From NCBI GenBank assembly GCA_028710895.1, contig JAQTTH010000002.1:323605-387604 (forward strand): a stretch of DNA of 64,000 nucleotides. Direction: 5' to 3'. Origin of the DNA: Paludibacter sp. GTDB taxonomy: Bacteria > Bacteroidota > Bacteroidia > Bacteroidales > Paludibacteraceae. Positions 11,655 through 64,000 of this stretch are shown here, in pieces. The translations under genes were made by a program, and so were the position numbers. The notes under the pieces were generated by a model. It saw nothing but the letters and a program-made list of their open reading frames with translations. It was not told the DNA's origin and made no database searches. Every line of letters begins with the position of its first letter. The stretch's first letter is position 1.

Positions 11655-11673
11655 CCTTAAAAACGATAAGATA

Positions 11674-13440: not shown

Positions 13441-13494
13441 GTTATAGGAGTTAATTCAGGGTTGCTTTATGAGTAAGCAACCCTGAAAATAGAT

Positions 13495-14964: not shown

Positions 14965-15001
14965 ATGCTTCGATTTTTTCTTTGAATGTTTGTTATTAGA
15001 T

Positions 15002-16501: not shown

Positions 16502-16526
16502 ATGATTCGTTTTTTTTGAAGGGTGA

Positions 16527-19553: not shown

Positions 19554-19645
19554 TTTATTATTTAAGGTTATATAAATATGAATGACGAGAATCTTATGCA
19601 ATCCAAAAACAATTGTTTTGAATTGAGTTTTGACTTTCGACAATG

Positions 19646-19653
19646 CAAATGTA
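19646..19653 (-). promoter_or_regulatory. Likely -7 box of the susC operon
   Basis: TACATTTG on the minus strand matches the TAnnTTTG -7 consensus of Bacteroidota and lies about 93 bases upstream of the chosen susC ATG. A -33 TTG lies at 15 rather than 19-21 bases, so the promoter is imperfect, as expected if an activator is needed. Confidence 0.45.
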
Positions 19654-19788
19654 TAAACAGTATTCATCCAATATTTTCAGTAGAATAAGAATGTAGTGGT
19701 TTTATGTCTGTTGAATGTGTAATTTGCAGAAAATCAATATTGTATGGTTGGGTTGTATGCGAATAAATGTAGTAACTCTGGAAATAAA

Positions 19789-21486: not shown

Positions 21487-21507
21487 ATTGAGATGACTAT
21501 TATGCTG

Positions 21508-21515
21508 CAAATATA
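21508..21515 (-). promoter_or_regulatory. -7 box of the SusR-like gene
   Basis: TATATTTG on the minus strand is a perfect match to TAnnTTTG and lies 22 bases upstream of the ATG at 21486. It overlaps the TTG that opens the longest reading frame, which is why that start is rejected. No TTG at the usual -33 spacing is visible. Confidence 0.5.
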
Positions 21516-42650: not shown

Positions 42651-43277
42651 TGTTTATATACTCAGCATTACTCTTCACCTGATTGAATATTATGTCATAT
42701 TCAACTAAAAACGGAGTATAATATTTACACTTCGGTTGCTAAGATATGATTTCAACGCTTTTCGCCATAAAGGCATATAATTCCACCACAGACGTTTTAT
42801 GAAGCAAATCTCCACATGCCGTTTAATAGGTGCTTCACAAAGTGATTAAGTCTGAATAAGATTATTCAATTTCTATTAAGTTGTTTTAAGTACTCCTGAT
42901 GAATCATGATGCCTGAAATGTACTCTGCCCGTTCTCCAATCTGTCCAAATATGATCATACACTAAGTAATACTACTTCCTATTTCAATAGCAATGAAATT
43001 GCTAGACATCAGGTTTTGTTATAGATTCGTTTATATACTATAATTTATTTTAAAATTTAAAATCGATATTGAATTAAACGAAAATGTAATAAGATTGTCC
43101 ATGTTTAAAATAAATTGCTCTATTTTTTCAAGTTCATATTTTGATTCTCTTTGCACTGTCAATTTAATGTTCCAGTCCGGACATACTTTGTCGATTTACA
43201 AACGAGCAATTTTTTATCTTATATTTACACCGAATCATTTTAGAAAAATACTTACACAACTAATAATTTCAATTGTA
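42651..43277. other. Long intergenic region without a clear gene
   Basis: About 630 AT-rich bases lie between the tRNA terminator and the chosen start of the sugar transporter. I see no supported gene, no strong hairpin and no perfect promoter; TTATATTTAC near 43218 is a weak -7 candidate for the transporter. A 30-codon minus-strand frame (42866-42958) reads like protein but is too short to call. Confidence 0.55.
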
Positions 43278-44663
43278 ATGAAGAAAAACACTAACTTTCA
43301 TTTATTCCTTATCTCATTAATATCTGCAATGGGTGGATTGCTTTTTGGGTACGATTGGGTCGTAATTGGAGGAGCGAAACCTTTTTATGAGCAGTTTTTC
43401 CAGATTGCCAATGAACCCATGTTACAAGGCTGGGCTATGAGTAGCGCTTTAATAGGTTGTTTGATTGGTGCGCTGGCATCCGGAAAACTAAGCGACCGGT
43501 ATGGTCGCAAACCGATACTGATTGTTGCGGCTGCTCTTTTTGTGTGTACTTCTATTGGTACCGGACTTTCCCCTGATTTTACATGGTTCAATATATTCAG
43601 GTTGATAGGTGGTTTTGCTATTGGTGCCGCTTCGAGTCTTTCGCCTATGTATATTGCTGAAATTGCTCCCGCCAAATTGCGTGGCCGGTTTGTAGCAATA
43701 AATCAGCTTACAGTTGTACTTGGAATTTTGGCTGCCCAGTTAGTTAACTGGTTAATTGCTGAGCCTGTTGCTGCTAATGCTACGGCTGAAATGATTCGTA
43801 TGTCGTGGAATGGCCAAACCGGTTGGCGTCTTATGTTTATAGTAATGACGATTCCTGCCAGTTTATTTTTTAGCCTTGGCTTCATATTGCCCGAAAGTCC
43901 ACGTTGGCTGGCAGTTAATGGAAAGCGGGAATCAGCTTTAAAGATCCTCACAAAACTCGTGGGATTGGATAATGCTAAGATTGAACTGCAAGCTATTGAG
44001 TCAAACATGCATTCGGAAGAAAAAGCAAGTTTCAAACAATTGCTTCATCCATCGCTTCGCAAAGTACTGATTATTGGAGTTGTGTTGGCTGTATTTCAGC
44101 AATGGTGCGGTATAAATGTGATTTTTAATTATGCGCAGGAAATCTTTATGTCAGCCGGTTTTGGAGTATCCGATGTGCTGCTGAATATTGTAATAACCGG
44201 AATTATGAATGTGATATTCACCGTGTTGGCCATGTATTTTGTAGACAAATGGGGACGAAAAGCATTGCTTTTGCTGGGTGCTTTTGGTCTGACTTTGATT
44301 TATGCTTTAATGGGTTCGGTGTATTATTTTCATATCTCAGGAAGCTTCTTATTGATAATTGTAGTATTGGCAATTGCTTGTTATGCAATGACTTTAGCAC
44401 CTGTAATGTGGATTGTGATTTCTGAAATTTACCCGAATCGTATTCGTGGAATTGCCATGTCGGTCGCCACATTCGCTTTGTGGACCGCCTGTTTTATTCT
44501 TACGTATACATTCCCGCTGTTGAACAAAGGCTTAGGTGCTGCCGGAACATTTTGGCTGTATGGTTTGATTTGCTTAATGGGTGGAATTTTTGTGATGAGA
44601 AATGTGCCTGAGACAAAAGGGAAAACCCTTGAAGAGCTCGAAAATGAATTGACAAAGAAATAA
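43278..44663 (+). CDS. Sugar:proton symporter, MFS family (XylE-like)
   Basis: Inner-membrane monosaccharide importer, 461 aa from the ATG at 43278 (MKKNTNFHLFLISL). A longer frame to 43095 adds a Ser/Phe-rich stretch before the first helix and is unlikely. Twelve membrane helices are expected. Family signatures are GGLLFGYDWVVIGGAKPF, GKLSDRYGRKP, the PESPRWL motif at the end of helix 6, QQWCGINVIFNYA in helix 7, and the C-terminal VPETKGKTLEELE. The closest E. coli relatives in layout are XylE and GalP; the sugar cannot be told. The DUF5107-TPR gene follows after 20 bases, implying a shared transcript. Confidence 0.93.
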   Translation: MKKNTNFHLFLISLISAMGGLLFGYDWVVIGGAKPFYEQFFQIANEPMLQGWAMSSALIGCLIGALASGKLSDRYGRKPILIVAAALFVCTSIGTGLSPDFTWFNIFRLIGGFAIGAASSLSPMYIAEIAPAKLRGRFVAINQLTVVLGILAAQLVNWLIAEPVAANATAEMIRMSWNGQTGWRLMFIVMTIPASLFFSLGFILPESPRWLAVNGKRESALKILTKLVGLDNAKIELQAIESNMHSEEKASFKQLLHPSLRKVLIIGVVLAVFQQWCGINVIFNYAQEIFMSAGFGVSDVLLNIVITGIMNVIFTVLAMYFVDKWGRKALLLLGAFGLTLIYALMGSVYYFHISGSFLLIIVVLAIACYAMTLAPVMWIVISEIYPNRIRGIAMSVATFALWTACFILTYTFPLLNKGLGAAGTFWLYGLICLMGGIFVMRNVPETKGKTLEELENELTKK

Positions 44664-44683
44664 TAGTGGAAATATTATATATA

Positions 44684-48528: not shown

Positions 48529-50505
48529 GTGAATAAAATCATCACATATATATGTTGTCTTCTTTTGGTATCGACAACTGCTTATTCTCAAAGCTACAAA
48601 TTATCTTCGCCTGATAAAAAGGTGGAACTAAAGATTCAGAATGATTCGGTTCTAAGGTACTCGCTTGTTTATCATGGTAAGGAAGTTACCCGCTCATCGT
48701 TTCTCGGGATGACTCTTGGTAATGGCAAGCGTTGGGGCTATGCTGATAAGGTAATCAAAAAAAGTATCCGGAATGAAAATTCTGTTGTTTCGTTGGTAAC
48801 CGGAAATTACAAAGAAATCAGCAATGTGTACAATGAATTAAAGCTCACGTTTAACGCCGGTTATTCAGTTTGCTTCAGGTTATACAACGAAGGAATGGCC
48901 TACCGGTTCGAAGGGAATGGCGGTGCTATCGATTCCATAACCGTAAAAACAGAAAAAGCCGATTTTCGTTTGTTGGATAATCCGGCGGTTATTCTGCCTG
49001 AAACAAACAATTTTACAGCCTGGGAACTCAGTCATAAAACATATAATTCCATTTCAGATATTGAAAATGGGAAATATGGAATTACACCCGTATTGTTTGA
49101 TAATAAGAAACAGGGATTGAAAGTGGTGATTGCCGAATCGAACCTGAATAACTATCCGGGAATGTATCTGCAAAAACAAGATGTCTCCATGAAAGGCTTT
49201 TGGGCATTGTACCCTAAAGAAGTGATAATGGGAAGTTGGGGAGATTTTGTAACTGTGGTGAAAGAACGCACAAGTTTTATTACCCGCACAGCCGGAAATC
49301 ATGTATTTCCATGGAGAATTATGATTGTGTCGGACGACGATCGCCAATTGTTGACTAACAATATGATTTATTTGTTGGCCAAACCACAGCAAATTAGAAA
49401 TACCGATTGGATTAAACCCGGAAAAGCAACCTGGGAATGGTGGCATTGTGCTATTTTGGAAAAAGCTCCTTTCGAAAGTGGCCCTGAGAAACTATCTACG
49501 CAGATGTATAAATATTATATCGATTTTGCGGCAGAAAACAAGCTCGAATATTTATTGATTGATGCCGGTTGGTCGAATTTATTTAAACCAAACGAATTAA
49601 ATCCGAACGTAGACGTAAAGGAAATAATACAATATGGTAAAGAGAAAAAAGTAGGAGTCTTATTGTGGACTGTAGCTTCCACACTGATGAAATATCCGCA
49701 CAAATATCTCGATTCGATAAGCAGTTGGGGTGCAGCCGGAGTTAAGATTGATTTTTTCGACCGTGACGATGCCCAAATCATGCCTCACTATGAGGAACTG
49801 GCAAAAGCTTGCGCCGAACGAAAATTGCTTGTTGATTTTCATGGCTGTAGTAAACCCACCGGTTTGAACCGGGCTTATCCAAATATCCTTTCGTACGAAG
49901 CAGTTCGTGGCATGGAGTGTTCCAAGTGGGATACGTCTACCAATCCAGATTACCGGCTTCAGTTCATTTTTAGCCGGATGTTGGCTGGTTCTATCGATTA
50001 TACTCCGGGCTCCATGCGCAATTCAAATCTCAAAAACTTCAAACCGATAGACCCTGGATTACCTATGAGTTTGGGCACCCGTTGTCAGGAACTAGCCGAA
50101 TATGTGGTTATCAACAGTTCGTTGGTAATGCTCGCCGATTCGCCGGATGAATATCGTAAATATCCGGACATTTTGAAATTCTTATCAGATGTTCCTGCAA
50201 GTTGGGATGACACGAAAGTGCTTTCGGCCAAATATGGAGAATTTGCTGTAGTTGCTAAGCGCAGAGGCAGTGACTGGTTTGTGGGTGGCATGACTAACTG
50301 GAATGAACGAGATATTACTCTTGATTTGTCATTTCTGACTTCAGGAAAAAAATATAAAGCTGAAATTTTCAGAGATGGCATTGATGCAAATCAGAATGCC
50401 AATCAGTATGTTTTTGAAACAAAAGAAGTAAAATCAACTTCTAGAATGACTATACACATGGCTAACGGAGGTGGTGTGGCTCTAAAAATTTCTCTGGTAA
50501 AATAA
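48529..50505 (+). CDS. GH97 glycoside hydrolase, retaining type, probably periplasmic
   Basis: A 658-aa enzyme of glycoside hydrolase family 97. The start codon is GTG, and the protein opens directly into a signal peptide (MNKIITYICCLLLVSTTAYS), so this start is well supported. An N-terminal beta-sandwich (about 25-290) precedes the barrel, which has WEWWHCAIL, LLIDAGWSN, GVKIDFFDRDD, DFHGCSKPTGLNRAYPN and SYEAVRGME. Asp408 in VKIDFF lies where retaining members such as the alpha-galactosidase BT1871 keep their nucleophile; SusB-type inverting alpha-glucosidases lack it. Glu457 is the likely acid/base. Alpha-galactosidase or beta-L-arabinopyranosidase activity is thus more likely than alpha-glucosidase. 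No type IX sorting domain is present. GH97 copy two follows after 30 bases. Confidence 0.9.
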   Translation: MNKIITYICCLLLVSTTAYSQSYKLSSPDKKVELKIQNDSVLRYSLVYHGKEVTRSSFLGMTLGNGKRWGYADKVIKKSIRNENSVVSLVTGNYKEISNVYNELKLTFNAGYSVCFRLYNEGMAYRFEGNGGAIDSITVKTEKADFRLLDNPAVILPETNNFTAWELSHKTYNSISDIENGKYGITPVLFDNKKQGLKVVIAESNLNNYPGMYLQKQDVSMKGFWALYPKEVIMGSWGDFVTVVKERTSFITRTAGNHVFPWRIMIVSDDDRQLLTNNMIYLLAKPQQIRNTDWIKPGKATWEWWHCAILEKAPFESGPEKLSTQMYKYYIDFAAENKLEYLLIDAGWSNLFKPNELNPNVDVKEIIQYGKEKKVGVLLWTVASTLMKYPHKYLDSISSWGAAGVKIDFFDRDDAQIMPHYEELAKACAERKLLVDFHGCSKPTGLNRAYPNILSYEAVRGMECSKWDTSTNPDYRLQFIFSRMLAGSIDYTPGSMRNSNLKNFKPIDPGLPMSLGTRCQELAEYVVINSSLVMLADSPDEYRKYPDILKFLSDVPASWDDTKVLSAKYGEFAVVAKRRGSDWFVGGMTNWNERDITLDLSFLTSGKKYKAEIFRDGIDANQNANQYVFETKEVKSTSRMTIHMANGGGVALKISLVK

Positions 50506-50535: not shown

Positions 50536-52776
50536 ATGAATTCACACACGAATAAAATAAGTATATTTCTATTTTTCACTCTTTTCTGTTTCCAGCATAT
50601 AATGGCGGTGGATTATGATGTGGCATCGCCTGATAGAAATTTCAAGATAACGCTTCATGTTGATAACGGAACACAGTATGAGGTTATTTATGGACAGACA
50701 CAACTGATATCTTCTTCAACAATTGGTATGAATCTTCAGGATGGAACGGTTGTGGGAAAAGGTACCATTAAAAGTGTTGAAAGAAATTCTGTTGATAATG
50801 TGCTTCCGGTTTTGATTGGCAAAAACAAAACATTGCAGGAAAAATATAATGAATTAATAGTTCACTATAATGAAAATTACGATCTGATTGTCAGGGCTTA
50901 CAATGAAGGTGTTGCATATCGTTTTGTAACTGCATTTTCAACTAACATTATTGTAAAATCAGAAGATGCAATCTTTAATTTTGCGGGTAACCCGAAAGTA
51001 TATTTTCCGGAAGCTACAACTTTAGACCACTGGGAAAAGGCGTATACCCTTTACAACTCGGTTAATGATTTGACTTCAAATCAATTTGCGGTTACGCCGA
51101 TTTTGTTCAGCTATCCGAACACCACTTGCAAAGTTGCAATTACCGAAGCCGATAATTCGGATTATCCCGGTTTGTATATTCAAAGCAATGGAACAAATTC
51201 GATGAAAGGGATGTGGGCGAACTATCCGGACTCAGTAAGTGATCCTACCAATGTTTATTCAAATCATGCACCGGTTACACGATTTAATTATATTGCCAAT
51301 ACCATTGGTACCCGCTCATTTCCTTGGCGTGTGATTATTGTATCGAATGATGATAAATCATTGTTGAATAACGAGTTGGTGTATATGCTGGCTACTCCAC
51401 TGAAGTTGGCAGATGTGTCGTGGATTGTTCCCGGAAAATCTTCTTGGGAATGGTGGCACAAAGCCATGCTTACTGCAGATGGTAGTGCTAATTCAGCATT
51501 AGGAATTCCTGCAAACGGAAATGCTAATTTGGGTCTCACCCTATATAAATATTATGTTGATTTTGCAGCCGCTAACCATATTGAATATATGACTTTGGAT
51601 GCAGGTTGGAGCGAAAGTTACATTAGTTCACTTTGTACCTATGCAAAATCCAAAAACGTCAAAATTATGGTTTGGACCTGGGCTAGTAATGCTTTGGAAA
51701 CTCCAAACTTGATTGCTAAATGGAAGCGATTTGGCATATCTGGAGTTAAAATTGATTTTTTTCAACGAAATGACCAAATAGCTATGAATTGGGGGGCTCG
51801 ATTGGCTCAGGATCTGGCAAACCAAAAAATGGTTGGTATATTTCATGGGTGCCCTGTTCCTACCGGATTGAACCGAGCTTACCCGAATATTCTGAATTTC
51901 GAAGCAGTACTGGGTGAAGAAGAGGATTTCTGGAGAAGAGGATCATCACCTGATTATCATGTGCTGTTTCCTTTTATGCGATCGTTGGTTGGGCCGGAAG
52001 ATTATACTCCGGGCTCAATGAGAAATAAGACTCAAAGACAATTTGTTCCTGTTGACTTGCCCAATATTATTCCATCCAGTCAGGGAACTCGTACGCATGA
52101 ATTATCTATGTACATTATAAACGATCAGTGGTTGGCTTATATGAGTGATGCTCCGACCGAATACATCAAATACCCCGATATTTTGGATTTTTTATCGAAG
52201 GTTCCAGCTGTATGGGATAAAACTGTTCCTTTAGATGCATCTCTTGGTGAATATATTCTTATCGCAAAACAAAAAGGGACTGACTGGTATGTTGGGGGAA
52301 TGAGCAGTTGGGTTGGTAAAAATGTAAATGTTGATTTTAGTTTTCTTAAGCCAGATACAAAATATACTGCAACAGTATTAAGAGATGATGTCACTTCGAG
52401 TGACTATCCGACACGCTATGTTAGCGAAACTATTGAGGTAACTTCAACAACAAATATGACTTATCAAATGTCTAACGGAGGTGGGTTTGTTATTCATCTC
52501 ACAGAAAGCACAACCAATGGAGTGAATGACGTTTATAGTGATTCGAAAGTATCCTTTGGAATTGATCGGGTGAATAAACTAATGAATCTCTATTCAGCAA
52601 ATCAAATAAAAACAGTCAATATATATAATGTTTCAGGACAACTGGTTTTTACTCAAGATTCTTTTTCAGATAACTCTTTTACTAAGCAAATCAATATTTC
52701 AAAAATCAATAGAGGAATTTATGTCGTAAAGGTGCAAACCTCAGAAGGTTTGAGTTCTTCTAAATTCACTAATTAA
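50536..52776 (+). CDS. GH97 glycoside hydrolase with type IX secretion domain
   Basis: A second GH97 enzyme, 746 aa, with a signal peptide (ISIFLFFTLFCFQHIMA). The barrel motifs parallel the preceding gene: WEWWHKAML, MTLDAGWSE, GVKIDFFQRND with the putative nucleophile Asp407, FHGCPVPTGLNRAYPN and NFEAVLGEEE with the candidate acid/base Glu456. It differs from its neighbour by an extra stretch after WEWWHKAML and a C-terminal extension of about 75 residues (VNIYNVSGQLVF, INRGIYVVKVQTSEG). That extension is a type A sorting domain of the type IX secretion system, so the enzyme should reach the cell surface or the medium. It lies in an operon between GH97 copy one and the FG-GAP gene. Confidence 0.9.
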   Translation: MNSHTNKISIFLFFTLFCFQHIMAVDYDVASPDRNFKITLHVDNGTQYEVIYGQTQLISSSTIGMNLQDGTVVGKGTIKSVERNSVDNVLPVLIGKNKTLQEKYNELIVHYNENYDLIVRAYNEGVAYRFVTAFSTNIIVKSEDAIFNFAGNPKVYFPEATTLDHWEKAYTLYNSVNDLTSNQFAVTPILFSYPNTTCKVAITEADNSDYPGLYIQSNGTNSMKGMWANYPDSVSDPTNVYSNHAPVTRFNYIANTIGTRSFPWRVIIVSNDDKSLLNNELVYMLATPLKLADVSWIVPGKSSWEWWHKAMLTADGSANSALGIPANGNANLGLTLYKYYVDFAAANHIEYMTLDAGWSESYISSLCTYAKSKNVKIMVWTWASNALETPNLIAKWKRFGISGVKIDFFQRNDQIAMNWGARLAQDLANQKMVGIFHGCPVPTGLNRAYPNILNFEAVLGEEEDFWRRGSSPDYHVLFPFMRSLVGPEDYTPGSMRNKTQRQFVPVDLPNIIPSSQGTRTHELSMYIINDQWLAYMSDAPTEYIKYPDILDFLSKVPAVWDKTVPLDASLGEYILIAKQKGTDWYVGGMSSWVGKNVNVDFSFLKPDTKYTATVLRDDVTSSDYPTRYVSETIEVTSTTNMTYQMSNGGGFVIHLTESTTNGVNDVYSDSKVSFGIDRVNKLMNLYSANQIKTVNIYNVSGQLVFTQDSFSDNSFTKQINISKINRGIYVVKVQTSEGLSSSKFTN

Positions 52777-52793: not shown

Positions 52794-54692
52794 ATGAAAA
52801 AAAATTACTTTTTTAAGCCTGCTTTAATAGTGGTGGCTTTGTTTAGTTTTGGTGCTGTTTTTGCTCAAACAGCAAAAATTCCCAATTTTGTAGAAAATGT
52901 ATCACCAGTAATTAATGGAACTACAAGTGAAGATTTTACATTTGCATTTGAATGTTCAGCAGCTTGGGGTGACTATAATAACGATGGTTATATGGACTTA
53001 ATTACTTCTGGCGTAAGTAATAACTGGGTGAAAATGACTATTCTATATAAGAATAATGGAAATGGAACTTTTACTAAAATTACTACGCCCTTCGATAACT
53101 TAGATGCTGCAAATATTACGTGGCTGGATTTTAACAATGATGGAAATCTTGATGTTATTTTAGCAGGTAAGGATGATATTGGATATTACACTGCAATATA
53201 TAAAAACCTCGGTGCAGCAGGTAATTATGATTTTCAAGAAGTAAATATCGGTTCTTTAGAGTATGTAAACAATGGTGGCGGAAACAGAGCTAATCGCTAT
53301 ATTATTCCTTGTGACTATAATAACGATGGTTGGGTTGATCTATATCTTCAAGGTGAAAATGAAACCGGGAGACATTCATTCTTATATAAAAATTTAAAAG
53401 GTAAGGGATTTGAGAAAATTGAGAATCCTGTTAACGGCGTTCAACCTTTTATTCAATTAAATGGTGGATCTGCTGCTTTTGCTGATTATGATGGTGATGG
53501 ATATCAGGATTTGATTGTTAGTGGTTATGCAGCTACAACAGATAGCTATGCTGGAGGTTATACAGGAGCACGTTACCATAATAATGGTGATGGTACATTT
53601 GCAGCTCCCGTTCTTTTTGATGGAACAGAAAGTGGCGAACTTGCATGGTGCGATTATAATAATGATGGTAAATGGGATTATATTGTTACTGGAGTAGGAG
53701 CAAACGCATCAGGTTGGTACTGGAAGAGTGATATATATGAAAACAATGGTGACGGTACTTTCACGCGTATACCTGCTGAACAAAGCGGACTACCTAATAA
53801 TAAGCAGGAAACTTCAATTGCATGGGGAGATGTCAATAATGATGGATATGAAGATTTATTGTATATGAACACTGATCCAAATAGTATCTTTTTGAATAAC
53901 TTTGGAGATCAAACTTTTGCAAAATATAAATTTACATATACTGAACCAGTAAGTGGAAGTAGTAGTGTCGATTATACTTATCAGGGTAACCAATGGGGCG
54001 GAACTGCTTGTTTAGTAGATTACGATCGTGATGGAAACCTAGATGCATTCACTGCAGCTTACGGATTCAATCCGAGATTGATGAAAAATCAGTTAGGTGA
54101 AGGTATTACTTCAAATCAAGCTCCAACTGCTCCAACTAATCTGGCTAGTTCAATTGATCAAAACGGTAATGTGAATTTAAGTTGGACTGCTGCTACTGAC
54201 GATGCAACATTGACAGAAGCGCTTAAATATAACGTATATGTCAAAAAGAATGGTAATGATAGTGTTTCATTCCTTCTACCTGCTGACATAACAACAGGTC
54301 GATTGAAAGTGAACGAAACTCTTGCTCCATTGAATAAAACAACATATAAAATTAAAGGTTTGACAAATGGCACTTATACATTTGGAGTGCAAGCAATTGA
54401 TAATTCAAAACTTGGTGGACATTTTGCTACTGCTCAATTCTTAGTTGGACCATCCGCTGTGAAATCAGATCTTGAAAGTAAAGTATCAGTATTCTCTGAC
54501 AACAAATTAATCAGGATTTCAACTTCTGCAGACATGCAGGGTGTAATCTCTGTTTTCAATGCTAATGGTTTAACTGTTTACTCTAAGACTGGAAATATCA
54601 ATAACACCAAAGTAAGTTTACCAGCTGGCGTATATATAGTAAAAGTTACTTCAGATAAAAATAGTTTGGTAGAAAAAGCAATTCTCAGATAA
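52794..54692 (+). CDS. FG-GAP/VCBS repeat protein with type IX sorting domain
   Basis: Secreted protein of 632 aa, signal peptide to about residue 24 (FGAVFA). At least six repeats with calcium-binding DxDxDG-like loops (AWGDYNNDGYMDLI, DFNNDGNLDVIL, DYNNDGWVDLYL, DYDGDGYQDLIV, DYNNDGKWDYIV, DVNNDGYEDLLY, DYDRDGNLDAFT) form a likely seven-bladed beta-propeller (about 45-450). A fibronectin type III-like domain follows (about 455-550). The C-terminus (VISVFNANGLTVYS, LPAGVYIVKVTSD) is a type A sorting domain. No enzyme motif is visible; carbohydrate or matrix binding is possible. It ends the GH97 operon, 17 bases after the second GH97 gene, and is followed by a terminator. Confidence 0.88.
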   Translation: MKKNYFFKPALIVVALFSFGAVFAQTAKIPNFVENVSPVINGTTSEDFTFAFECSAAWGDYNNDGYMDLITSGVSNNWVKMTILYKNNGNGTFTKITTPFDNLDAANITWLDFNNDGNLDVILAGKDDIGYYTAIYKNLGAAGNYDFQEVNIGSLEYVNNGGGNRANRYIIPCDYNNDGWVDLYLQGENETGRHSFLYKNLKGKGFEKIENPVNGVQPFIQLNGGSAAFADYDGDGYQDLIVSGYAATTDSYAGGYTGARYHNNGDGTFAAPVLFDGTESGELAWCDYNNDGKWDYIVTGVGANASGWYWKSDIYENNGDGTFTRIPAEQSGLPNNKQETSIAWGDVNNDGYEDLLYMNTDPNSIFLNNFGDQTFAKYKFTYTEPVSGSSSVDYTYQGNQWGGTACLVDYDRDGNLDAFTAAYGFNPRLMKNQLGEGITSNQAPTAPTNLASSIDQNGNVNLSWTAATDDATLTEALKYNVYVKKNGNDSVSFLLPADITTGRLKVNETLAPLNKTTYKIKGLTNGTYTFGVQAIDNSKLGGHFATAQFLVGPSAVKSDLESKVSVFSDNKLIRISTSADMQGVISVFNANGLTVYSKTGNINNTKVSLPAGVYIVKVTSDKNSLVEKAILR

Positions 54693-54938: not shown

Positions 54939-57533
54939 ATGAAAGTTACTCTAAACAACAAAAGGTTGTACATTATCATGTCCATATTGATAATGCTTGG
55001 TACGTTTTTCAATTCTTGCAAAGACGACTATTTCTATAATGACAAGGAACCAAACTTTTTAGGTGCCAGCATCTATAACTATATGGAGCAAGATGGTCAT
55101 TTCCATTATTTCTTAAGATTAGTTGATGATCTAAATTACAAGGACGTACTGACTTATACAGGTAGTAAAACCCTTTTTCCAACGAGAGATGATGCTTTCG
55201 AACGCTTTTTCCAGAATAACTCATACGGTATCAAATCTTATGAAGACTTAACTGCTGCCCAAAAGCGTAGCCTGATGAACGTTAGTATGATAAATATGGC
55301 TTATTTGTCCAATATGTTGTCCAATGTAGCATCTACACAGAACGCTTCCGGCGAAGGCCTGGCATTACGCAGGAATACAGCAAATACCTTTCTTGATAGT
55401 ATATCTTATGTGAAAGATGAGACTTTGTTCTCAAACTCTTTTTGGAACCGTTTTGCATCAAAAGGATTGTATCTGGTTGATAATGAATATCCTGCTCCTG
55501 TTGTTCATTTTACATCGTTTAATATGATGAAGCAAGGTATCAGTGAAAATGATTTTTCCATTTTAAATAATGGGAAGTCTTTTGACAGTAATACGTTTTA
55601 TGTCAATGGAATTAAGGTAGTAGATAAAGATATTATTTGTAAAAACGGTTACGTACATGTGCTTGAAGATTTAATGTTGCCTGCAAAGAATATGGCTCAA
55701 ATCATTAGGGATAATGGTGAAACTAATTTGTTTAATGGCTTGCTGAATAAATTTTGTATGCCTTATTACGTGGACAATATTGCGAAAGAAACACATGATT
55801 ATTATAATGGTTCAGCCCCTGCTCGTCCAACCATTCCAACTTCCGACTCCATATTTGTTAAGCGTTACTTTACAAACAGTTTCAGCCAGGATGCAAATGG
55901 TAAAACACTTACCAACTACGGGCTATTATACTTTGATCCAAGCGATAATGCATACACACCTAGCGCTTTGCAACAAGATATGGGAGCAATGTTTGTTCCA
56001 ACCGACGAAGCAATGAGTAATTATATCAACGGTGAAAAGGGTCGTTATTTGAAAGATGCTTATGGAAGTTGGGAAAACATTCCAACATCACTATTGGCAT
56101 TATTCCTGAAAAATCATCAGAAGAAATCATTTCTGAATTCACTACCTCACACTTGGCCAACACTGACTGACGAATCAAGTGCTATGATGAATGTTTCGGC
56201 AAGTAATATTAAAAAAACATATATAGGTAACAACGGTGCGGTCTACATTTCCTCTGTCGTTTATCCTCCTATTGATTATCAATGTGTTTACGCTTCTGTT
56301 ATGACAAGTGGCACCACAAAAATCATGAACTGGGGAATTCAGGATGCAACCTTAAAATTTTATTTGTATCTGAGGTCAATGGAAAATATGTATAACCTAA
56401 TAGTTCCGGTTGATGAGGCATTTGATAATTATCGCGACCCGATTGCATGGGCTAAAGGCGAAGCAGCCCGCGAGATATGGTCATTCAGATATGTTCCTGA
56501 TAAAAACATGGTTTATGCCGATGTTTACAGCGTGAATGGATCGGGCGAAAAAGGAGCTAAATTAAGGCAATTGACAAATAGCAATGTAGATCAGGCAATT
56601 ATCAGAAACCGTATAAATGATATTATTGATATGCATATCGTTGTAGGTCAAAAAGTTGGGACTGAAATGTCCGGCTACATTGACGATGGAAATACGCTTT
56701 ATGCCCTGACAAAAGGTGGAGCAATGCTTAAAATAAGCGGTAGCAACGGAAATACACAGATGAAAGGTGGTGGAGATATTGAGCAAAATACTGTAGCAGC
56801 AAGCATAATTACTAACCCGACTTCGGGAGTGAAAAATCTTTATAGTTCGGATAACGGAAGAACGTATTTTGTAAATAAAATACTTCAGGACCCAATTAAG
56901 TCAGTGTATTCTATAATGGGAGAGCATCCAGAATACAAAGCATTTTTTAATTTATTGAAAGGTGACGACCGCGTATTTACTTATTTCCAGTCAGATAAGG
57001 ATATTGTTCCGGTTTTCAACCTGAAAAAAATGTCTGCTTCATCGGGATTAGGATATGTGGTAAATTCGTTTAATAACTTTCGTTATACAGTTTTTGTCCC
57101 AACCGAACAGGCCTTAAACCAAGCTTTTACCGATGACCCGAAACTATTTACATGGGATGAAATTGCCAACGAAACTGATTATAATTTGAAAAAAGCTAAA
57201 ACTATTTATTTGTTGAAATTTCTGAAATATCACTTCATGGATAATTCAACTTTCATAAATGGGAAAGCAATCAATAATTTGAAATATGAAACTGCAGCCA
57301 GAGATGACTCCGGGAAATTTTATAAGTTGATTTTAAACAGTGATGGCTCAAACCTCCAGGTAAATAATGAGCTTATAACAGTTAGAGCTAATGTTATTAA
57401 AACAGAAGGACTGTATAACTTGATGGCAAGGGATTATATTGTAGACAATGGCGATTATATGAGAGCAAACAAAATAGTATCTTCCTCGCGTGCTGTTATT
57501 CATTTAATAGACAAAGCATTAAAGTTTGAATAA
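54939..57533 (+). CDS. FAS1 (fasciclin) multidomain lipoprotein upstream of SusC
   Basis: An 864-aa lipoprotein (lipobox TFFNSC, Cys27), probably on the outer membrane. It appears to consist of four FAS1-like modules. The first holds YTGSKTLFPTRDDAFERFF, the second DMGAMFVPTDEAMSNYI, the third MYNLIVPVDEAFDNY and the fourth YTVFVPTEQALNQAF. Each is followed by a helical LKNH- or LKYHF-type segment. FAS1 domains mediate adhesion or ligand binding; in SusC/SusD loci their ligand is unknown. The stop codon TAA is directly followed by the ATG of the susC-like gene, so translation is coupled. Being first in the operon, before SusC, is unusual for a SusE-position protein. Confidence 0.85.
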   Translation: MKVTLNNKRLYIIMSILIMLGTFFNSCKDDYFYNDKEPNFLGASIYNYMEQDGHFHYFLRLVDDLNYKDVLTYTGSKTLFPTRDDAFERFFQNNSYGIKSYEDLTAAQKRSLMNVSMINMAYLSNMLSNVASTQNASGEGLALRRNTANTFLDSISYVKDETLFSNSFWNRFASKGLYLVDNEYPAPVVHFTSFNMMKQGISENDFSILNNGKSFDSNTFYVNGIKVVDKDIICKNGYVHVLEDLMLPAKNMAQIIRDNGETNLFNGLLNKFCMPYYVDNIAKETHDYYNGSAPARPTIPTSDSIFVKRYFTNSFSQDANGKTLTNYGLLYFDPSDNAYTPSALQQDMGAMFVPTDEAMSNYINGEKGRYLKDAYGSWENIPTSLLALFLKNHQKKSFLNSLPHTWPTLTDESSAMMNVSASNIKKTYIGNNGAVYISSVVYPPIDYQCVYASVMTSGTTKIMNWGIQDATLKFYLYLRSMENMYNLIVPVDEAFDNYRDPIAWAKGEAAREIWSFRYVPDKNMVYADVYSVNGSGEKGAKLRQLTNSNVDQAIIRNRINDIIDMHIVVGQKVGTEMSGYIDDGNTLYALTKGGAMLKISGSNGNTQMKGGGDIEQNTVAASIITNPTSGVKNLYSSDNGRTYFVNKILQDPIKSVYSIMGEHPEYKAFFNLLKGDDRVFTYFQSDKDIVPVFNLKKMSASSGLGYVVNSFNNFRYTVFVPTEQALNQAFTDDPKLFTWDEIANETDYNLKKAKTIYLLKFLKYHFMDNSTFINGKAINNLKYETAARDDSGKFYKLILNSDGSNLQVNNELITVRANVIKTEGLYNLMARDYIVDNGDYMRANKIVSSSRAVIHLIDKALKFE

Positions 57534-60500
57534 ATGAAAAAAGAAATAAATATGAATAACATAAAATATGTTTTCCAGCTTATACTTATTTGTTTGCCAT
57601 TATTCGTCTTTGGTCAGGTAAATTCGAAGCAATCGCTTATTACCGGCCATGTATATTCGGATGGAGTTGGTGGACTGATTGGAGTTCATGTACTTGAAAT
57701 TGATAAAACTAATCGAATTGTGTCAGCTACGATAACTGATTACAGTGGTAATTTTTCCCTTGCGATTAAAAATCCCGCAAATTCATTGAAAATTACATAC
57801 GTGGGTTATAAAATGGTTGTTCTTCCTATAGGTAGTAAAACCAGATTTGACGTGAAAATTGAAGATAATACTCAAATTTCCGAGGTTGTTGTAGCTGCCA
57901 AAAAGATGTATTCTGATGGAACGTTTGCAATCCCGCAGCGTGAAATTTCGGGTGCTGTACAAAAAATAAATACAAAAGAATTTGAAGGACTTTCTGTGTC
58001 ATCCATCGATGATGCGCTTCAGGGGCGCATTGCCGGGCTTGACATTGTAGGAAATTCCGGTAACTTAGGTTCCGGTTCTACATTGAGAATACGTGGTACG
58101 TCTTCTATCAATTCTAATGCAGAACCGCTGATTGTAGTCAATGATGTGCCCTTCGAAAATAATATCAGCACTTCTTTTGATTATGCTACAGCTAATCAGG
58201 AGCAGTTCGCTAACCTATTGAATATAAGTCCGGATGATATTGAAGAAATCCTTGTGCTGAAAGACGGTGCTTCTGCTGCAATTTGGGGATCGAGAGGTGC
58301 CAATGGAGTTATTTCCATCAAAACAAAGAAAGGTATCAAAGGTCCGACCAAAGTTCAGTATTCATACCGCTTTTCTGGAAAAACGCAACCTGCCGGTTTG
58401 AAGATGTTAAGTGGAAATGATTATACAATGATGATGAAACAGGCGTATTTCAATTCGTATCAAAACGAAGCTGATGCCAATAAGCCAGAATTTAACTATA
58501 ATCCTTCCTTTTCTGAGTATGAAAATTTCAACAACAACACGAATTGGGTTAAAGCAATTACCCAGTATGGTATAACGCACGATCATAACCTGACACTCTC
58601 GGGTGGTGAAGATAAAATCCGTTTCCGTATGTCGTTGGGATATTATGATGAATCGGGAACAATAATAAAACAAAATTTACGCCGACTTACTGGTCGTACC
58701 AATCTTGAATATCAGGTTTCTGACCGGATTAAATTCACTACAGATTTTTCTATTACGCAAACAAATAATGATAAGAATTTAGCTTACGATGTTGGTGATT
58801 CGTATAATACAGAAAACCTCCTGAGTATGGCGTACCGTAAAATGCCTAACGTATCTATCTACGAACAGGACCAGTTTGGTAATAATACGAGTAATTTTTA
58901 CAGGATTCCACAATCATCAACACTTGATGCATCTCAACGAGACCTGTTAAATCCGGTAGCATTGGCATACCTGGCTAAAAACAACGAAAAGAATCTTCGT
59001 ATCATACCTACATTCAGGTTGCAATATGATATTCTAGACCCAAATGTTACCATGTTGCGTTATAACGGTTATGTTTCTTTTGATATTGACAACCAGGGAG
59101 TTTCCAGGTATCTTCCACGTGAGGTTACGTCCAAGAACTGGGATGATGAAACCGTAAACCGTTCGTACGGAAAAGATGCAGAATCGATGTCAATATATGC
59201 CGATCAAAACATTACTTGGATGCCTAAAATAGGTAAAAATCATGATTTAATGTTGTATGCATCCTGGCAGCTTTCAACTGTGAATTCCAGAAGCCAGGAA
59301 TTTGAAGAATATGGATTGGCATCATCGATAATTACCGACCCCACAGTGTCGGGAAATGAAAGGACTTTCAGAAACGGATTTGGGCAAAGGCGGACTATGG
59401 GATTGTTGGGCAGGGTGCACTATACATATTTGAGCCGCTATATATTAGATCTTTCACTCCGACGAGATGCTGATTCCCGTTTTGGATCGAACAACCGTTG
59501 GGGGAATTTTCCGGCCACATCTATCAAATGGATTTTGTCAGATGAAGATTTCATGAAACCGACTAAATCGTGGTTAAGCGAATTGGGTATTCGCGCTGGA
59601 TATGGTGTTGTAGGTAACACGCCTAACAGGGATTATTTGTATTACAGCCGTTATGATGGTGATTGGGGCAGTTATGGAAATAATTACATTGATATTTCAA
59701 CGGTGAAACCAACTTCTGTGATGTTAGCTAACCTGAAATGGGAAAAGTCAACGTCTAACAATCTCGGTTTCGACATGAGTTTGTTTGATTATAAATGTAA
59801 TATTGACTTCAATGTCTATAAAAAGCGTACAGAAGATTTGTTATTTGAAAATCAGAGTATTCCCGGATCATCAGGCTTTTCATCCCTGGATTATATCAAT
59901 GCTGGTGTGATGGACAATACCGGTTGGGAATTTAATTTTTCCACTAACAAGTTATTCAAAACTAAAGACTGGACTTTTGATGTGAATTTGAATTTATCAA
60001 ATTATATCAATGAAATCGTTTCGCTTTCTCAAACATTTTTGAATGCTTATAATTCAAACTTCAGCTACACGAACGGTACTTATCTGTCCCGGCTTCAACA
60101 AGGTAATGCGTTAGGCTCTATCTATGGTTTCCGTTACAAAGGTGTTTATCAATACGATAAATATGTGGCTGGCCGTGAAGGAACTAGTCCTGTGGCAAGA
60201 AACGCCGCCGGAGATGTTATTACCGACAGTAAAGGAAATCCGTTTCCCATGCATTTTGCGTATGGAACCACGTCAAGCTATGTTTTTAGAGGCGGTGATG
60301 CCATTTACGAAGACATAAATCATGATGGTAGCATTGATGAACTTGATATTGTATACCTTGGGAATAGTAACCCAAAGGTTAACGGTGGTTTTGGAGCGAC
60401 AATAAAGTATAAGAACTTCTCTGTCAATACGTTTTTCAACTTCAGATACGGAAATAAAATTCTCAACAAAGCCCGTATGGACGCTGAGAATATGATGACA

Positions 60501-60878
60501 AACAATAACCAGTCTGTTGCTGTAAACTGGCGCTGGCGCAAAGATGGCGACGTTACAGAAATTCCACGGGCATTGTACAACTACGGATTTAACAGTCTTG
60601 GAAGTGACAGATATGTAGAAGATGGTTCTTTCCTGCGACTTAAGTATTTGACATTCTCTTACGAACTGGAGAAAAAGTTGTTGAAAGAACTTAAGCTGAA
60701 TCAAATGAATTTCTATCTGACACTCAATAATTTAGTTACATTTACTAAATATACAGGAGTGGATCCGGAAGTGTCAATCAATATGAATCCGGGTTATGGA
60801 CTCATCGGTGTGAGTACAGATAGCAATAAAACGCCACGTGCCCAGTACTTTACACTTGGAGTTACTGTAGTTTTGTAA
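57534..60878 (+). CDS. SusC-like TonB-dependent transporter, FAS1 locus
   Basis: Outer-membrane importer of 1114 aa. The ATG immediately follows the stop of the FAS1 gene; a second ATG six codons on (MNNIKYVFQLIL) opens directly into the signal peptide and is an alternative start. The carboxypeptidase-regulatory-like domain (LITGHVYSDGVGGLIGVHVLE) is followed by the plug (SSIDDALQGRIAGLDIVG, LRIRGTSSINSNAEPLIVVNDV, LKDGASAAIWGSRGANGV) and the barrel, which ends FTLGVTVVL. The usual VVVVGYG box is replaced by VVVAAKK, a divergence also seen in other FAS1-linked SusC proteins as far as I recall. It is probably paired with the SusD protein 18 bases downstream. Confidence 0.94.
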   Translation: MKKEINMNNIKYVFQLILICLPLFVFGQVNSKQSLITGHVYSDGVGGLIGVHVLEIDKTNRIVSATITDYSGNFSLAIKNPANSLKITYVGYKMVVLPIGSKTRFDVKIEDNTQISEVVVAAKKMYSDGTFAIPQREISGAVQKINTKEFEGLSVSSIDDALQGRIAGLDIVGNSGNLGSGSTLRIRGTSSINSNAEPLIVVNDVPFENNISTSFDYATANQEQFANLLNISPDDIEEILVLKDGASAAIWGSRGANGVISIKTKKGIKGPTKVQYSYRFSGKTQPAGLKMLSGNDYTMMMKQAYFNSYQNEADANKPEFNYNPSFSEYENFNNNTNWVKAITQYGITHDHNLTLSGGEDKIRFRMSLGYYDESGTIIKQNLRRLTGRTNLEYQVSDRIKFTTDFSITQTNNDKNLAYDVGDSYNTENLLSMAYRKMPNVSIYEQDQFGNNTSNFYRIPQSSTLDASQRDLLNPVALAYLAKNNEKNLRIIPTFRLQYDILDPNVTMLRYNGYVSFDIDNQGVSRYLPREVTSKNWDDETVNRSYGKDAESMSIYADQNITWMPKIGKNHDLMLYASWQLSTVNSRSQEFEEYGLASSIITDPTVSGNERTFRNGFGQRRTMGLLGRVHYTYLSRYILDLSLRRDADSRFGSNNRWGNFPATSIKWILSDEDFMKPTKSWLSELGIRAGYGVVGNTPNRDYLYYSRYDGDWGSYGNNYIDISTVKPTSVMLANLKWEKSTSNNLGFDMSLFDYKCNIDFNVYKKRTEDLLFENQSIPGSSGFSSLDYINAGVMDNTGWEFNFSTNKLFKTKDWTFDVNLNLSNYINEIVSLSQTFLNAYNSNFSYTNGTYLSRLQQGNALGSIYGFRYKGVYQYDKYVAGREGTSPVARNAAGDVITDSKGNPFPMHFAYGTTSSYVFRGGDAIYEDINHDGSIDELDIVYLGNSNPKVNGGFGATIKYKNFSVNTFFNFRYGNKILNKARMDAENMMTNNNQSVAVNWRWRKDGDVTEIPRALYNYGFNSLGSDRYVEDGSFLRLKYLTFSYELEKKLLKELKLNQMNFYLTLNNLVTFTKYTGVDPEVSINMNPGYGLIGVSTDSNKTPRAQYFTLGVTVVL

Positions 60879-60896
60879 ATAATAAAACGTAATAAT

Positions 60897-62465
60897 ATGA
60901 AAATTAAATATATACGTACCGTAATTGGTCTCATTGTTCTTTCGCTTTCGTTGTCAGGTTGCGGAGAATGGTTTGATTTGCGTCCACAGTCGGAAACGGT
61001 TCACGAAGAATACTGGAAAGATGAAAACGATGTAAAAAGTATGGTTGGTGCCTGCTATCGTGAAATGAACGAACCTGCTTTGATCGAAAGGTTAATTGTT
61101 TGGGGTGAAGTTCGTTCTGATAATGTTTTGAAAGGGATGAACACCTCAGGTGACCTGACTTATATTATGAATCTGGCTTTAAATGCATCTAATTCATATA
61201 CATCGTGGAATGACTTTTACAAAGTAATAAACTATTGCAATAATGTGATTTACTATGCACCCGGTGTTCGCCAAACTGACCCGAATTTCACAGAGGGCCA
61301 GCTCAGGGCATACATCGCCGAGGCAAAGGGAATACGTGCATTGTGTTATTTTACGCTGATTCGTACTTTTCACGATGTGCCGTTTATCACCAAACCAACA
61401 GTTGGTGATGCGGAATCATTTGAAGTGCCGCAATCTACTCCGGAATACATTGTGGATTATCTGATCCAGGATTTGAAAGACAGCGAAAATAGTGCTGTTT
61501 CGGGCTACGAAAACAAGCAATATGATAAAGGGCGCATTACCCAAAAATCTATTAGGGCACTTATAGCCGACATGTATCTCTGGAAAAACGATTATAACAA
61601 TTGTGTTGTGTATTGCAACAAGATCTTGAATGATCAGACCACGGGACTTGTTTTGGAACCATCGTCGGTTTACAATAAAAATGTTTTCATCGAGGGTAAC
61701 TCAAAAGAAAGTATTTTTGAGTTGCAGTTCGATAGTAAAAATATCAGTAATTATGTCGCGTATGAAATGTATAACGCTACTTCTTTCGGTAGTCGCCCTG
61801 GTTACAATACATATCAACTTTCTTCCTACGATTTTGCGAATAAAACGACTTTATTCGGGAAAACTGATTTACGGGGAAAAGATGCATTTCTACCAATATC
61901 AACAGGGGCTTTCTTCCCAATAATGAAATATGTTGCCATGCGGGTTGAAAACCCAACAGGTACAATTAGTGTGAATGATTATCAAATTTCTGTAACAAGT
62001 CCCAATTGGATTTTTTACAGATTGTCTGATGTCTATTTAATGAAGGCCGAAGCATTGGTTGAATTAGGCGATCAGGAAAGTTTGCAAGAGGCGTTTAATA
62101 TGGTATCAAAAACTTACGATCGGGCAAATCCCGATTTAGGCGCAGGGTCTTTACAATTTTCTTCCTTTAACACCCAATTGTTGATGCGAAATCTGGTTTT
62201 TGACGAACGCCAGCGGGAGTTTTTATTCGAAGGAAAAAGATATTATGATTTGCTCAGGCGAATTAATCGCGAAGGAACACCAGCAAATGTGGTCGGAACA
62301 TACCTGATGAAGAAATATACTGTTTTGGATCAGGCCACAGCACAGAGCCGGCTTAGCGATGTAAATGCACTTTATATGCCTGTTAATGCTAATGAGTTGA
62401 AATTAAATTCTTTATTGGTTCAAAATCCTTTTTATACGATATCATCCGACATTGATAAAAACTAG
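60897..62465 (+). CDS. SusD-like lipoprotein, FAS1 locus
   Basis: A 522-aa lipoprotein (lipobox SLSLSGC, Cys22) of the SusD/RagB family that should cap the upstream SusC. Family features: an N-terminal EWFDLRPQSETVHEEYWKDE, YIAEAKGIRALCYFTLIRTFHDVPFIT in the TPR-like core, the late YRLSDVYLMKAEALVELGD, and the C-terminal NLVFDERQREFLFEGKRYYDLLRR. It is full length. The next FAS1 lipoprotein gene starts 8 bases after its stop, completing a FAS1-SusC-SusD-FAS1 operon. Confidence 0.94.
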   Translation: MKIKYIRTVIGLIVLSLSLSGCGEWFDLRPQSETVHEEYWKDENDVKSMVGACYREMNEPALIERLIVWGEVRSDNVLKGMNTSGDLTYIMNLALNASNSYTSWNDFYKVINYCNNVIYYAPGVRQTDPNFTEGQLRAYIAEAKGIRALCYFTLIRTFHDVPFITKPTVGDAESFEVPQSTPEYIVDYLIQDLKDSENSAVSGYENKQYDKGRITQKSIRALIADMYLWKNDYNNCVVYCNKILNDQTTGLVLEPSSVYNKNVFIEGNSKESIFELQFDSKNISNYVAYEMYNATSFGSRPGYNTYQLSSYDFANKTTLFGKTDLRGKDAFLPISTGAFFPIMKYVAMRVENPTGTISVNDYQISVTSPNWIFYRLSDVYLMKAEALVELGDQESLQEAFNMVSKTYDRANPDLGAGSLQFSSFNTQLLMRNLVFDERQREFLFEGKRYYDLLRRINREGTPANVVGTYLMKKYTVLDQATAQSRLSDVNALYMPVNANELKLNSLLVQNPFYTISSDIDKN

Positions 62466-62473
62466 AGATAACC

Positions 62474-64000
62474 ATGAAAATAAAAAATATAAATATGGAT
62501 AATGCTCGCATTTTAAAGAGAAGATATCTTCTCATAATTTTTGCTCTCATTGGGCTGATGACTTCTTGCAACACCGATGATATTAAGACTAAAAATTATT
62601 ATACATTTACTGGTGAGACTGTTGCTTCTTTCTGCAAAAGCAAGAGCAATCTGTCTATTTTCTATCGTATTATAAACGAATCCAACAGCTATAATATGTT
62701 GTCGGTATACGGTCATTTTACCTGTTTTGCACCTACAGATTCGGCATTTAATGCATACTTTGTTGCAAAAAATATCAAGTACAGCGACCTCACAACTGAG
62801 GATAAACAGACGATCGTGAATAATCACATTATTCGAAATGAAACGAAGGAATACCTGACGAGTGATTTTGAAGAAGGAGCTTTGCCCACACCAAATATGA
62901 GCGACCGTTTTCTGGTCATTTCGTATTCCAATGCCGTGCCGGGGCATCAGGTTATTCTGGTGAATAAAAGTGCACCTATTTTAGTGAAAGACAATAAAGT
63001 GCATAATGGAGTGGTGCACATTGTTGGAAAAATTGTGGAGCCATCGGAGGATAATTTGCTTTCTGTAATGAAAGAACATGACTATTTTAAACTGTTTTCG
63101 CAAGCATTTGAACTTACGAATTTGTCCGATTCAGTCAAGGGAATTTATGATTATTCATATAAGGATCCGAGTCCGGGTGCTGATAGAACTAATGTAGTAG
63201 GCTACAGTGTGGCAGTTCTACACACCAAAAAAGTAGGCTATACTATTTTTGCTGAACCAGATGATATATTCAAAGCACAGAATATCAATAATTTGGAAGA
63301 GTTGGTTGAATTTTGTAAACAACACTACGGAACTCAGGACCTGAATGATTATACAAGCAGAAATAATCCATTGAACAAGTTTATCTCATATCACATGCTG
63401 AATCGGCAAATGTCTACAAATGCGTTTATATATTCTGGTCCAAATACTTCTGCATATGCTATGGATCAACGCTATGAGTATTATGAAACAATGCTCACAA
63501 AACGCTTGATTGAAATTAAAGCAGGAAACAAAATCAATACGCTTAAAGACGGAACTTTTGTGGGTGTAAATGAATCGAGAAGTAATTTGGATGGTATGAA
63601 TGGATATGTTCATGCACTGACCAAAGTGCTGGTTTATGATGAAAATAATATGGTGACGGACGTGCTGAATAAACGAATTCGCGTTGATGCTTACGCCATT
63701 CCACCTCAATTGACAAACAATAACCTGCGTTGGAATTTGGATGATATTAGAACCATTTCTCCTGATTTTTGCGGTAAATATCTGAAATTTAATCCAGCCT
63801 GTAAAATCATTTTGTGGGGAAGTAACAGCTGGGATGACCATCAGGCCGACGAAATAAGTATACGCGGCTGGTATGATTTCACACTGCGTTTGCCGCCAGT
63901 TCCACCGGGAACCTACGAAATTAGGTTTGGATACAATGCTGTTCCATGGCGCGGAATTGCCCAATTATTTATCGATAATCAGATTGTTGGGATTCCAGTG
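62474..64000 (+). CDS. FAS1 lipoprotein in SusE position, cut by window end
   Basis: An open frame of 509 codons from the ATG at 62474 (MKIKNINMDNARILKRR) to the window end with no stop, so the C-terminus is missing. A lipobox (IGLMTSC, Cys32) marks it as a lipoprotein. At least two FAS1-like modules are seen: SVYGHFTCFAPTDSAFNAYF with HNGVVHIVGKIVEP, and YTIFAEPDDIFKAQNI with GMNGYVHALTKVLVYDE. Then comes a beta-rich domain (WYDFTLRLPPVPPGTYEIRFGYN, AQLFIDNQIVGIPV), similar in style to the C-terminal domain of the secreted protein at 27563-28846. In position it replaces SusE as the surface glycan-binding partner of SusC/SusD. Confidence 0.85.
   Translation, partial: MKIKNINMDNARILKRRYLLIIFALIGLMTSCNTDDIKTKNYYTFTGETVASFCKSKSNLSIFYRIINESNSYNMLSVYGHFTCFAPTDSAFNAYFVAKNIKYSDLTTEDKQTIVNNHIIRNETKEYLTSDFEEGALPTPNMSDRFLVISYSNAVPGHQVILVNKSAPILVKDNKVHNGVVHIVGKIVEPSEDNLLSVMKEHDYFKLFSQAFELTNLSDSVKGIYDYSYKDPSPGADRTNVVGYSVAVLHTKKVGYTIFAEPDDIFKAQNINNLEELVEFCKQHYGTQDLNDYTSRNNPLNKFISYHMLNRQMSTNAFIYSGPNTSAYAMDQRYEYYETMLTKRLIEIKAGNKINTLKDGTFVGVNESRSNLDGMNGYVHALTKVLVYDENNMVTDVLNKRIRVDAYAIPPQLTNNNLRWNLDDIRTISPDFCGKYLKFNPACKIILWGSNSWDDHQADEISIRGWYDFTLRLPPVPPGTYEIRFGYNAVPWRGIAQLFIDNQIVGIPV

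What the first reader, a model, noticed from the sequence alone, without database searches (positions are those of the whole stretch)
54939..64000. FAS1-SusC-SusD-FAS1 operon: a poorly described glycan or adhesion import system
Seen: a four-module FAS1 lipoprotein is encoded before susC with TAA directly followed by ATG. A second FAS1 lipoprotein occupies the SusE position, and the SusC has VVVAAKK in place of the usual VVVVGYG box. Known: SusC/SusD pairs normally associate with SusE-type or immunoglobulin-like binding proteins. Two large FAS1 proteins flanking the transporter suggest a different mode of ligand capture, perhaps of a proteoglycan or matrix polymer. No hydrolase lies inside the operon; the GH97 genes upstream may supply it.
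Basis: partly seen in the sequence, partly recalled or inferred. Interest (0 to 1): 0.7.

Follow-up and report, generated by a model that had tools for sequence, protein, structure and literature searches.

The report
Seven-gene fasciclin double sugar importer

Summary
Read past 64000 it runs FAS1A-SusC1-SusD1-FAS1B-FAS1C-SusC2-SusD2, without an enzyme. The host genome, a Paludibacter relative, has seven such sets. In 395 genomes drawn across the phylum all 8 strong FAS1B hits outside the host lie in the complete order; the seven gene trees track each other. Models give FAS1A four FAS1 modules, as in periostin, and FAS1B two FAS1 modules plus a CBM84-like domain, so capture need not rest on FAS1. 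The odd VVVAAKK is a Ton box without the lock tyrosine that follows it in levan SusC: 0 of 68 SusC1 are aromatic there, against 30 of 30 ordinary SusCs. SusC2 linkers score like shuffled sequence, and the second SusC of ten ordinary tandem loci has a degraded box. Best reading: a TonB-driven pair with a weakly or non-driven partner pair and a fasciclin/CBM surface apparatus, importing plant-type glycans, for the window copy probably alpha-galactose-rich. Substrate and complex are inferred.

The parts
54939..57533 (+). FAS1A: lipoprotein, four FAS1 modules (about 48-250, 255-446, 461-652, 660-862; limits by my reading)
   Evidence: AlphaFold2 pLDDT 86.7; match to four-FAS1 chains of TGFBIp/periostin
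57534..60878 (+). SusC1: SusC/RagA TonB-dependent transporter; Ton box EVVVAA kept, lysine at the place of the aromatic-lock tyrosine
   Evidence: TIGR04056 722 bits
60897..62465 (+). SusD1: SusD lipoprotein lid of SusC1
   Evidence: PF07980 93.3 bits; solved SusD homologues
62474..64000 (+). FAS1B (runs to about 64321 beyond the window): lipoprotein, two FAS1 modules (47-390) plus a C-terminal CBM84-like domain (398-609)
   Evidence: AlphaFold2 pLDDT 92.1; fold matches
52794..54692 (+). FG-GAP repeat protein with T9SS tail; relatives are in view in 13 of 106 related loci compared, beside the operon or beside an extra FAS1B
50536..52776 (+). GH97 with T9SS tail, probable partner enzyme
48529..50505 (+). 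GH97, probable partner enzyme
43095..44663 (+). sugar transporter of the major facilitator superfamily, possible inner-membrane step (true start probably further in)
   Evidence: PF00083 376 bits

Best explanation
A seven-gene outer-membrane glycan-import module of Bacteroidota. Shown: gene content, order, repeated copies and co-inheritance; FAS1 chains, four modules in FAS1A; a CBM84-like fold at the end of FAS1B; a Ton box in SusC1 and none recognisable by matrix in SusC2. Inferred: SusC1-SusD1 is the TonB-driven importer. SusC2-SusD2 is a partner pair that TonB drives weakly or not at all, perhaps the second half of a hetero-dimer or a docking and loading platform. The FAS1 chains act as arms and scaffold on the cell surface in the role of SusE/SusF-type binding proteins, and the CBM-like domain of FAS1B binds the polysaccharide. 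Enzymes beside each copy cut different plant-type polysaccharides; the window copy most likely serves an alpha-galactose-rich glycan that also carries fucose or L-galactose and mannose.
Confidence: 0.62

Rival explanations
1. The FAS1 lipoproteins are adhesins that hold the cell to plant particles; the two SusCD pairs are merely co-regulated with them.
For: FAS1 proteins are often taken as adhesion proteins, and FAS1A resembles periostin and TGFBIp. The review PMC6032426 (passages) reports this view but calls it possibly misleading for bacteria and prefers 'matricellular'.
Against: Fixed places around and between the SusCD genes, short gaps and matched trees fit a complex better; FAS1B has a CBM-like domain.
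Confidence: 0.14
2. Both SusC proteins are TonB-driven importers, perhaps with different substrates; SusC2 uses an altered Ton box that the matrices miss.
For: Ton boxes are loose; SusC2 keeps N-terminal extension, plug and barrel (643 bits to TIGR04056); second SusCs of ordinary tandem loci keep an aromatic residue at the lock place by eye in 10 of 10.
Against: SusC2 linkers score like shuffled sequence with two matrices, while 30 of 30 single or otherwise boxed SusCs show a box followed by tyrosine.
Confidence: 0.3
3. The system imports peptides or glycopeptides, as RagAB does, not glycans.
For: SusCD pairs can carry peptides (passage of PMC7661554); RagA is among the solved relatives of SusC1.
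Against: The best solved match of SusC1 is the SusC homologue 8aa4; flanks of six of the seven copies include carbohydrate-active enzymes or glycosyl-hydrolase domains; beside the C8 copy only a DUF4450 protein was named.
Confidence: 0.06
4. One reading: the FAS1 modules themselves capture a matrix polymer or proteoglycan.
For: FAS1 domains bind varied ligands, and plant FLA4 has been proposed to touch galactan side chains of rhamnogalacturonan I (PMC6032426, passages).
Against: A separate CBM-like domain is present in FAS1B; no proteoglycan-type enzyme was named among the flanking proteins scanned.
Confidence: 0.15

Closest known systems
Levan and dextran utilisomes of Bacteroides thetaiotaomicron (SusC-SusD-SGBP-GH; PMC7618045, passages)
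   Same: SusCD core with surface binding lipoproteins; SusC1's best solved match is 8aa4, a SusC homologue; Ton box present
   Different: two SusCD pairs, three FAS1 lipoproteins, no enzyme gene in the operon, no aromatic-lock tyrosine in SusC1, no recognisable Ton box in SusC2
Ordinary tandem SusC-SusD-SusC-SusD loci
   Same: two SusCD pairs in a row; the second SusC has no box that scores above shuffles in 10 of 10 loci read here
   Different: no FAS1 proteins; their second SusC keeps an aromatic lock residue by eye; SusC1 and SusD1 of the FAS1 operons form separate subfamilies (at least 1186 and 332 bits; other SusC at most 593, other SusD at most 191)
TGFBIp and periostin (four-FAS1 matricellular proteins)
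   Same: four FAS1 modules in one chain
   Different: bacterial lipoprotein in a transporter operon; 11-17% identity
CBM84 xanthan-binding modules (and CBM35)
   Different: sequence match very weak (E 0.24); ligand site not examined

Membership tests
SusCD-type polysaccharide utilisation locus | adjacent SusC and SusD genes | tested here: met
   TIGR04056 for SusC1 and SusC2; PF07980 and PF14322 for SusD1 and, just over the cut-offs, SusD2
SusCD-type polysaccharide utilisation locus | carbohydrate-active enzymes and a sugar-type regulator nearby | tested here: met
   GH97, GH2, GH36, GH95, GH92; AraC-type regulator (below the equivalog cut-offs) and hybrid two-component regulator
SusCD-type polysaccharide utilisation locus | growth on a glycan depends on it | not testable with these tools
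   needs a bench test
Levan/dextran-type utilisome | SusE-type or Ig-type binding protein and surface glycanase in the operon | tested here: not met
   the positions hold FAS1 proteins and no enzyme is inside
FAS1 family | FAS1 fold and Pfam Fasciclin over its cut-off | tested here: met
   FAS1A, FAS1B, FAS1C over cut-off; fold for FAS1A and FAS1B; FAS1C not folded
TonB-dependent transporter, SusC1 | Ton box between N-terminal extension and plug | tested here: met
   62 of 68 above shuffles with the SusC1 matrix; 30 of 66 with an independent one
TonB-dependent transporter, SusC2 | Ton box between N-terminal extension and plug | tested here: not met
   2 of 68 and 4 of 66 above shuffles; 0 of 23 at least 8 on a joint alignment
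CBM84/CBM35 | beta-sandwich fold | tested here: met
CBM84/CBM35 | ligand-binding residues and sugar binding | not tested
   no residue mapping and no binding data

The most novel reading that the evidence does not exclude
Tandem SusCD systems in general are hetero-oligomeric importers made of one TonB-coupled SusC and one dedicated SusC whose Ton box has decayed or gone, and the FAS1 operon is their most elaborate form: a fasciclin and CBM surface apparatus that links a driven pore to a passive one, with a SusC1 that has also dropped the aromatic lock and so signals substrate loading in another way.
Probability: 0.34. Interest if true: 0.82.

Novelty: new variant of a known kind. Interest (0 to 1): 0.62.

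Why it matters
In the host genome these operons hold 14 of about 37 SusD genes, so a large share of its outer-membrane uptake may run through a machine that we did not find described. The Ton-box split could explain why many polysaccharide loci carry two SusCD pairs, and it is testable with point mutants. It also gives the widespread FAS1 domain a concrete bacterial setting.

Tried and rejected
Rejected: that the system has four genes (it was cut by the window edge). Rejected: that VVVAAKK is a private oddity of this SusC; 0 of 68 SusC1 have GYG there and 0 of 68 an aromatic residue at the lock position. Considered and not shown: a special link with pectin. Pectin or arabinan enzymes stand beside several copies, but in the host genome most PL11 and GH28 genes lie elsewhere. 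Softened after a recheck: that the second SusC of ordinary tandem loci has no Ton box at all. None of 10 scores above shuffles, but altered remnants are visible by eye, about half with a proline in or next to the box, and all 10 with Y or F near the lock place. Led nowhere: a promoter scan with a recalled Bacteroidota pattern found nothing in the 246 bases before FAS1A and no excess over shuffles. The C-terminal domains of FAS1B and FAS1C did not match each other (1.8% probability). Pfam gave nothing for the window's FAS1B C-terminal domain and nothing over a cut-off for the other C-terminal pieces. NCBIfam had no match for FAS1A, FAS1B, FAS1C or SusD2 at 0.001.

Literature: none of the rows listed by searches describes a FAS1 double-SusCD unit or a SusC without a Ton box. 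For most rows I saw the listing only; two searches listed 30 of 267 and 30 of 365 papers, and searched six exact phrases. The library holds open-licence papers only. One FAS1 gene is named in a figure legend of a Gramella cellulose/hemicellulose locus (PMC4891872, section 19). Passages only were read of PMC10199937, PMC7661554, PMC6032426, PMC10807430, PMC10881899, PMC7782687 and PMC7618045.

Limits of the counts: the 78 named loci were found by two FAS1B peptide patterns, which favours FAS1B with a full C-terminal domain. The count of 45 collapses neighbouring duplicates, so loci with split reading frames such as L042 are in it; 41 have seven single frames. The other 33: 22 are runs cut by a contig end or lacking a part, 10 have no SusCD pair in view, 1 is rearranged (my sorting of the list). 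The 68 operons contain two duplicates, L080/L153 and L082/L150; some searches were run on all 68. One of the 68, the C22:64646 copy, has FAS1B upstream of FAS1A. In one search only the three best first-look candidates of each genome were scored, six, so counts of hits are lower bounds. Of 22 hits of at least 200 bits outside the host (9 of 198 genomes, 20 loci L150-L169), 12 loci were complete, 3 cut by contig ends, 3 with components in another order, 2 without SusCD in view. The tandem and single control loci were picked by me from a capped list; in L170 the first SusC was not found, and in L184 and L187 it is off the contig, so their SusC is called second by the SusD before it.

Full report
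What is there. The window is C22:323605-387604 of a 4.9 Mb genome. The closest named relatives of the FAS1 proteins are from Paludibacter assemblies (FAS1A 79%; FAS1B 83% in L036); unnamed relatives reach 92% and 95%. Reading on past 64000, FAS1B ends at about 64321 and is followed by a third FAS1 protein (FAS1C), a second SusC and a second SusD, all on one strand. No enzyme lies inside the seven genes. The three FAS1 proteins and both SusD look like lipoproteins; in the window copy FAS1C's cysteine lies in a looser context that my pattern missed.

A repeated unit. The genome holds seven such sets, on C22 (three), C37, C5, C8 and C14. In one, C22:64646, FAS1B stands before FAS1A. All 23 Pfam FAS1 matches of the genome fall inside these sets (one search read). 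They contain 14 of about 37 SusD genes: 35 distinct genes, 12 of them in these sets, plus two SusD2 that the Pfam model missed.

A conserved unit. FAS1B loci from named records include Bacteroides nordii, Hallella, Xylanibacter, Paraprevotella, Dysgonomonas, Geofilum, Natronoflexus and Paludibacter; 45 of 78 have the full order and 22 more are cut by contig ends or lack a part. In 395 genomes drawn evenly over the phylum, 24 had a match to the FAS1B profile at 1e-20, the host included (three candidates scored per genome). Outside the host 8 hits in 7 genomes exceeded 200 bits, and all 8 lie in the complete seven-gene order. These genomes share only the class with the host. The weaker hits listed cover at most 247 of 626 profile positions and were not followed. 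Across 68 complete operons (66 distinct) tree distances of the seven genes correlate at 0.87-0.95, and for the window copy L036 is the nearest neighbour in all seven genes. The 21 pairs among the host's seven copies, where species history cannot be the cause, give 0.80-0.98. So the seven genes are inherited together.

The SusC boxes. In Bt1763 the Ton box is residues 82-88, next to Y89 of an aromatic lock (PMC7782687 passages; PMC7618045 passages). The usual VVVVGYG is thus Ton box plus lock tyrosine. In SusC1 the hydrophobic box remains but the residue at the Y89 place is never aromatic: 0 of 68, mostly K, Q, E or S. In SusC2 no such box is found between N-terminal extension and plug. A matrix from SusC1 boxes scores 14.3 (median, leave-one-out) in SusC1 linkers, 62 of 68 above their own shuffles at the 5% level, and -2.6 in SusC2 linkers, 2 of 68 above. 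A matrix from 30 ordinary SusCs is less kind to SusC1 (median 6.3, 30 of 66) but gives SusC2 -3.5 and 4 of 66.

Controls for the boxes. In the host genome and nine other genomes of its order, 22 SusCs with no second pair in the fetched stretch, 7 first SusCs of tandem loci and one further SusC all carry a box followed by tyrosine by reading (30 of 30; 28 score at least 8; 28 of 30 above shuffles leave-one-out). The second SusC of ordinary tandem loci scores at most 2.4 in 10 of 10, and none is above shuffles. By eye these ten keep altered remnants at the place, for example with proline or asparagine in the box, and an aromatic residue. So the box is degraded there rather than erased. Six of the ten loci are from three other genomes, so the rule needs a wider scan.

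Context and substrate. The copies have different neighbours. Window copy: GH97 x2, FG-GAP protein, then AraC-type regulator, GH2, GH36, aldose epimerase, hybrid regulator, GH36, Melibiase_C protein, GH95, GH92. C5: PL11 x2, a PcRGLX-type lyase and a GH95 relative. C14: GH28 and a pectic lyase. C22:64646: GH127, an alpha-L-arabinofuranosidase and GH43. C22:131384: GH43, GH125, GH2, GH127-type. C37: a T9SS protein with a Glyco_hydro_cc domain and an H-type lectin domain. C8: a DUF4450 protein. In other orders or families: PL4-type lyase with GH115, esterases, GH2. Among 106 related loci a GH95 relative is in view in 12 and the FG-GAP relative in 13; flanks are cut by locus ends, so absence means little. 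Extra FAS1B genes in L043, L044 and L049 sit among relatives of the window's flanking enzymes. I infer plant-type polysaccharides, with an alpha-galactose-rich glycan for the window copy. A basidiomycete fucomannogalactan would fit GH36, GH95 and GH92, but this is recalled chemistry and a guess.

Contrast within the window. At 8979-19667 (minus strand) lies a textbook locus: SusC with EEVVVVGYG, SusD, a SusE/SusF protein and a GH66 enzyme. It shows what the SusE position usually holds.

Verdict. The unit is a new variant of the SusCD kind. Function as a glycan importer is likely; CBM-based capture and the driven-plus-passive pairing are the testable proposals.

Noticed in passing
window 8979-19667 (-): Canonical SusC-SusD-SusE/F-GH66 locus, probably for dextran, with a hybrid two-component regulator at 1417-5514 and a DUF6377 protein at 19843-21510.
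   Followed up: partly
L170-L173 (host genome) and L182-L187 (three other genomes): Ordinary tandem SusCD loci whose second SusC has a degraded Ton box; possibly a general rule.
   Followed up: partly
L043, L044, L049: Extra FAS1B genes outside a FAS1 operon but among relatives of the window's flanking genes: L043 with GH95, GH2, GH92, GH36, Melibiase_C and FG-GAP; L044 with GH36, Melibiase_C and FG-GAP; L049 with GH2, Melibiase_C and FG-GAP. A FAS1A gene starts at the edge of L043 on the other strand, and L049 adjoins the complete operon of L050 on one contig.
   Followed up: partly
L066, L069: Three FAS1B-like genes in a row in Bacteroidaceae assemblies from rumen and omasum samples.
   Followed up: no
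L075 (= L151), L155 (= L110): A FAS1B gene followed by a conserved trio of about 557, 324 and 403 residues of unknown role.
   Followed up: no
C14:360976-363876 of the host genome (L028): A SusC2 of 966 residues that seems to lack the N-terminal extension domain.
   Followed up: no
window 44666-48061 (+): DUF5107 domain fused to a long tetratricopeptide-repeat region beside the sugar transporter and GH97 genes.
   Followed up: no
window 6371-8347 (-): Schlafen group 3 helicase-type protein.
   Followed up: no
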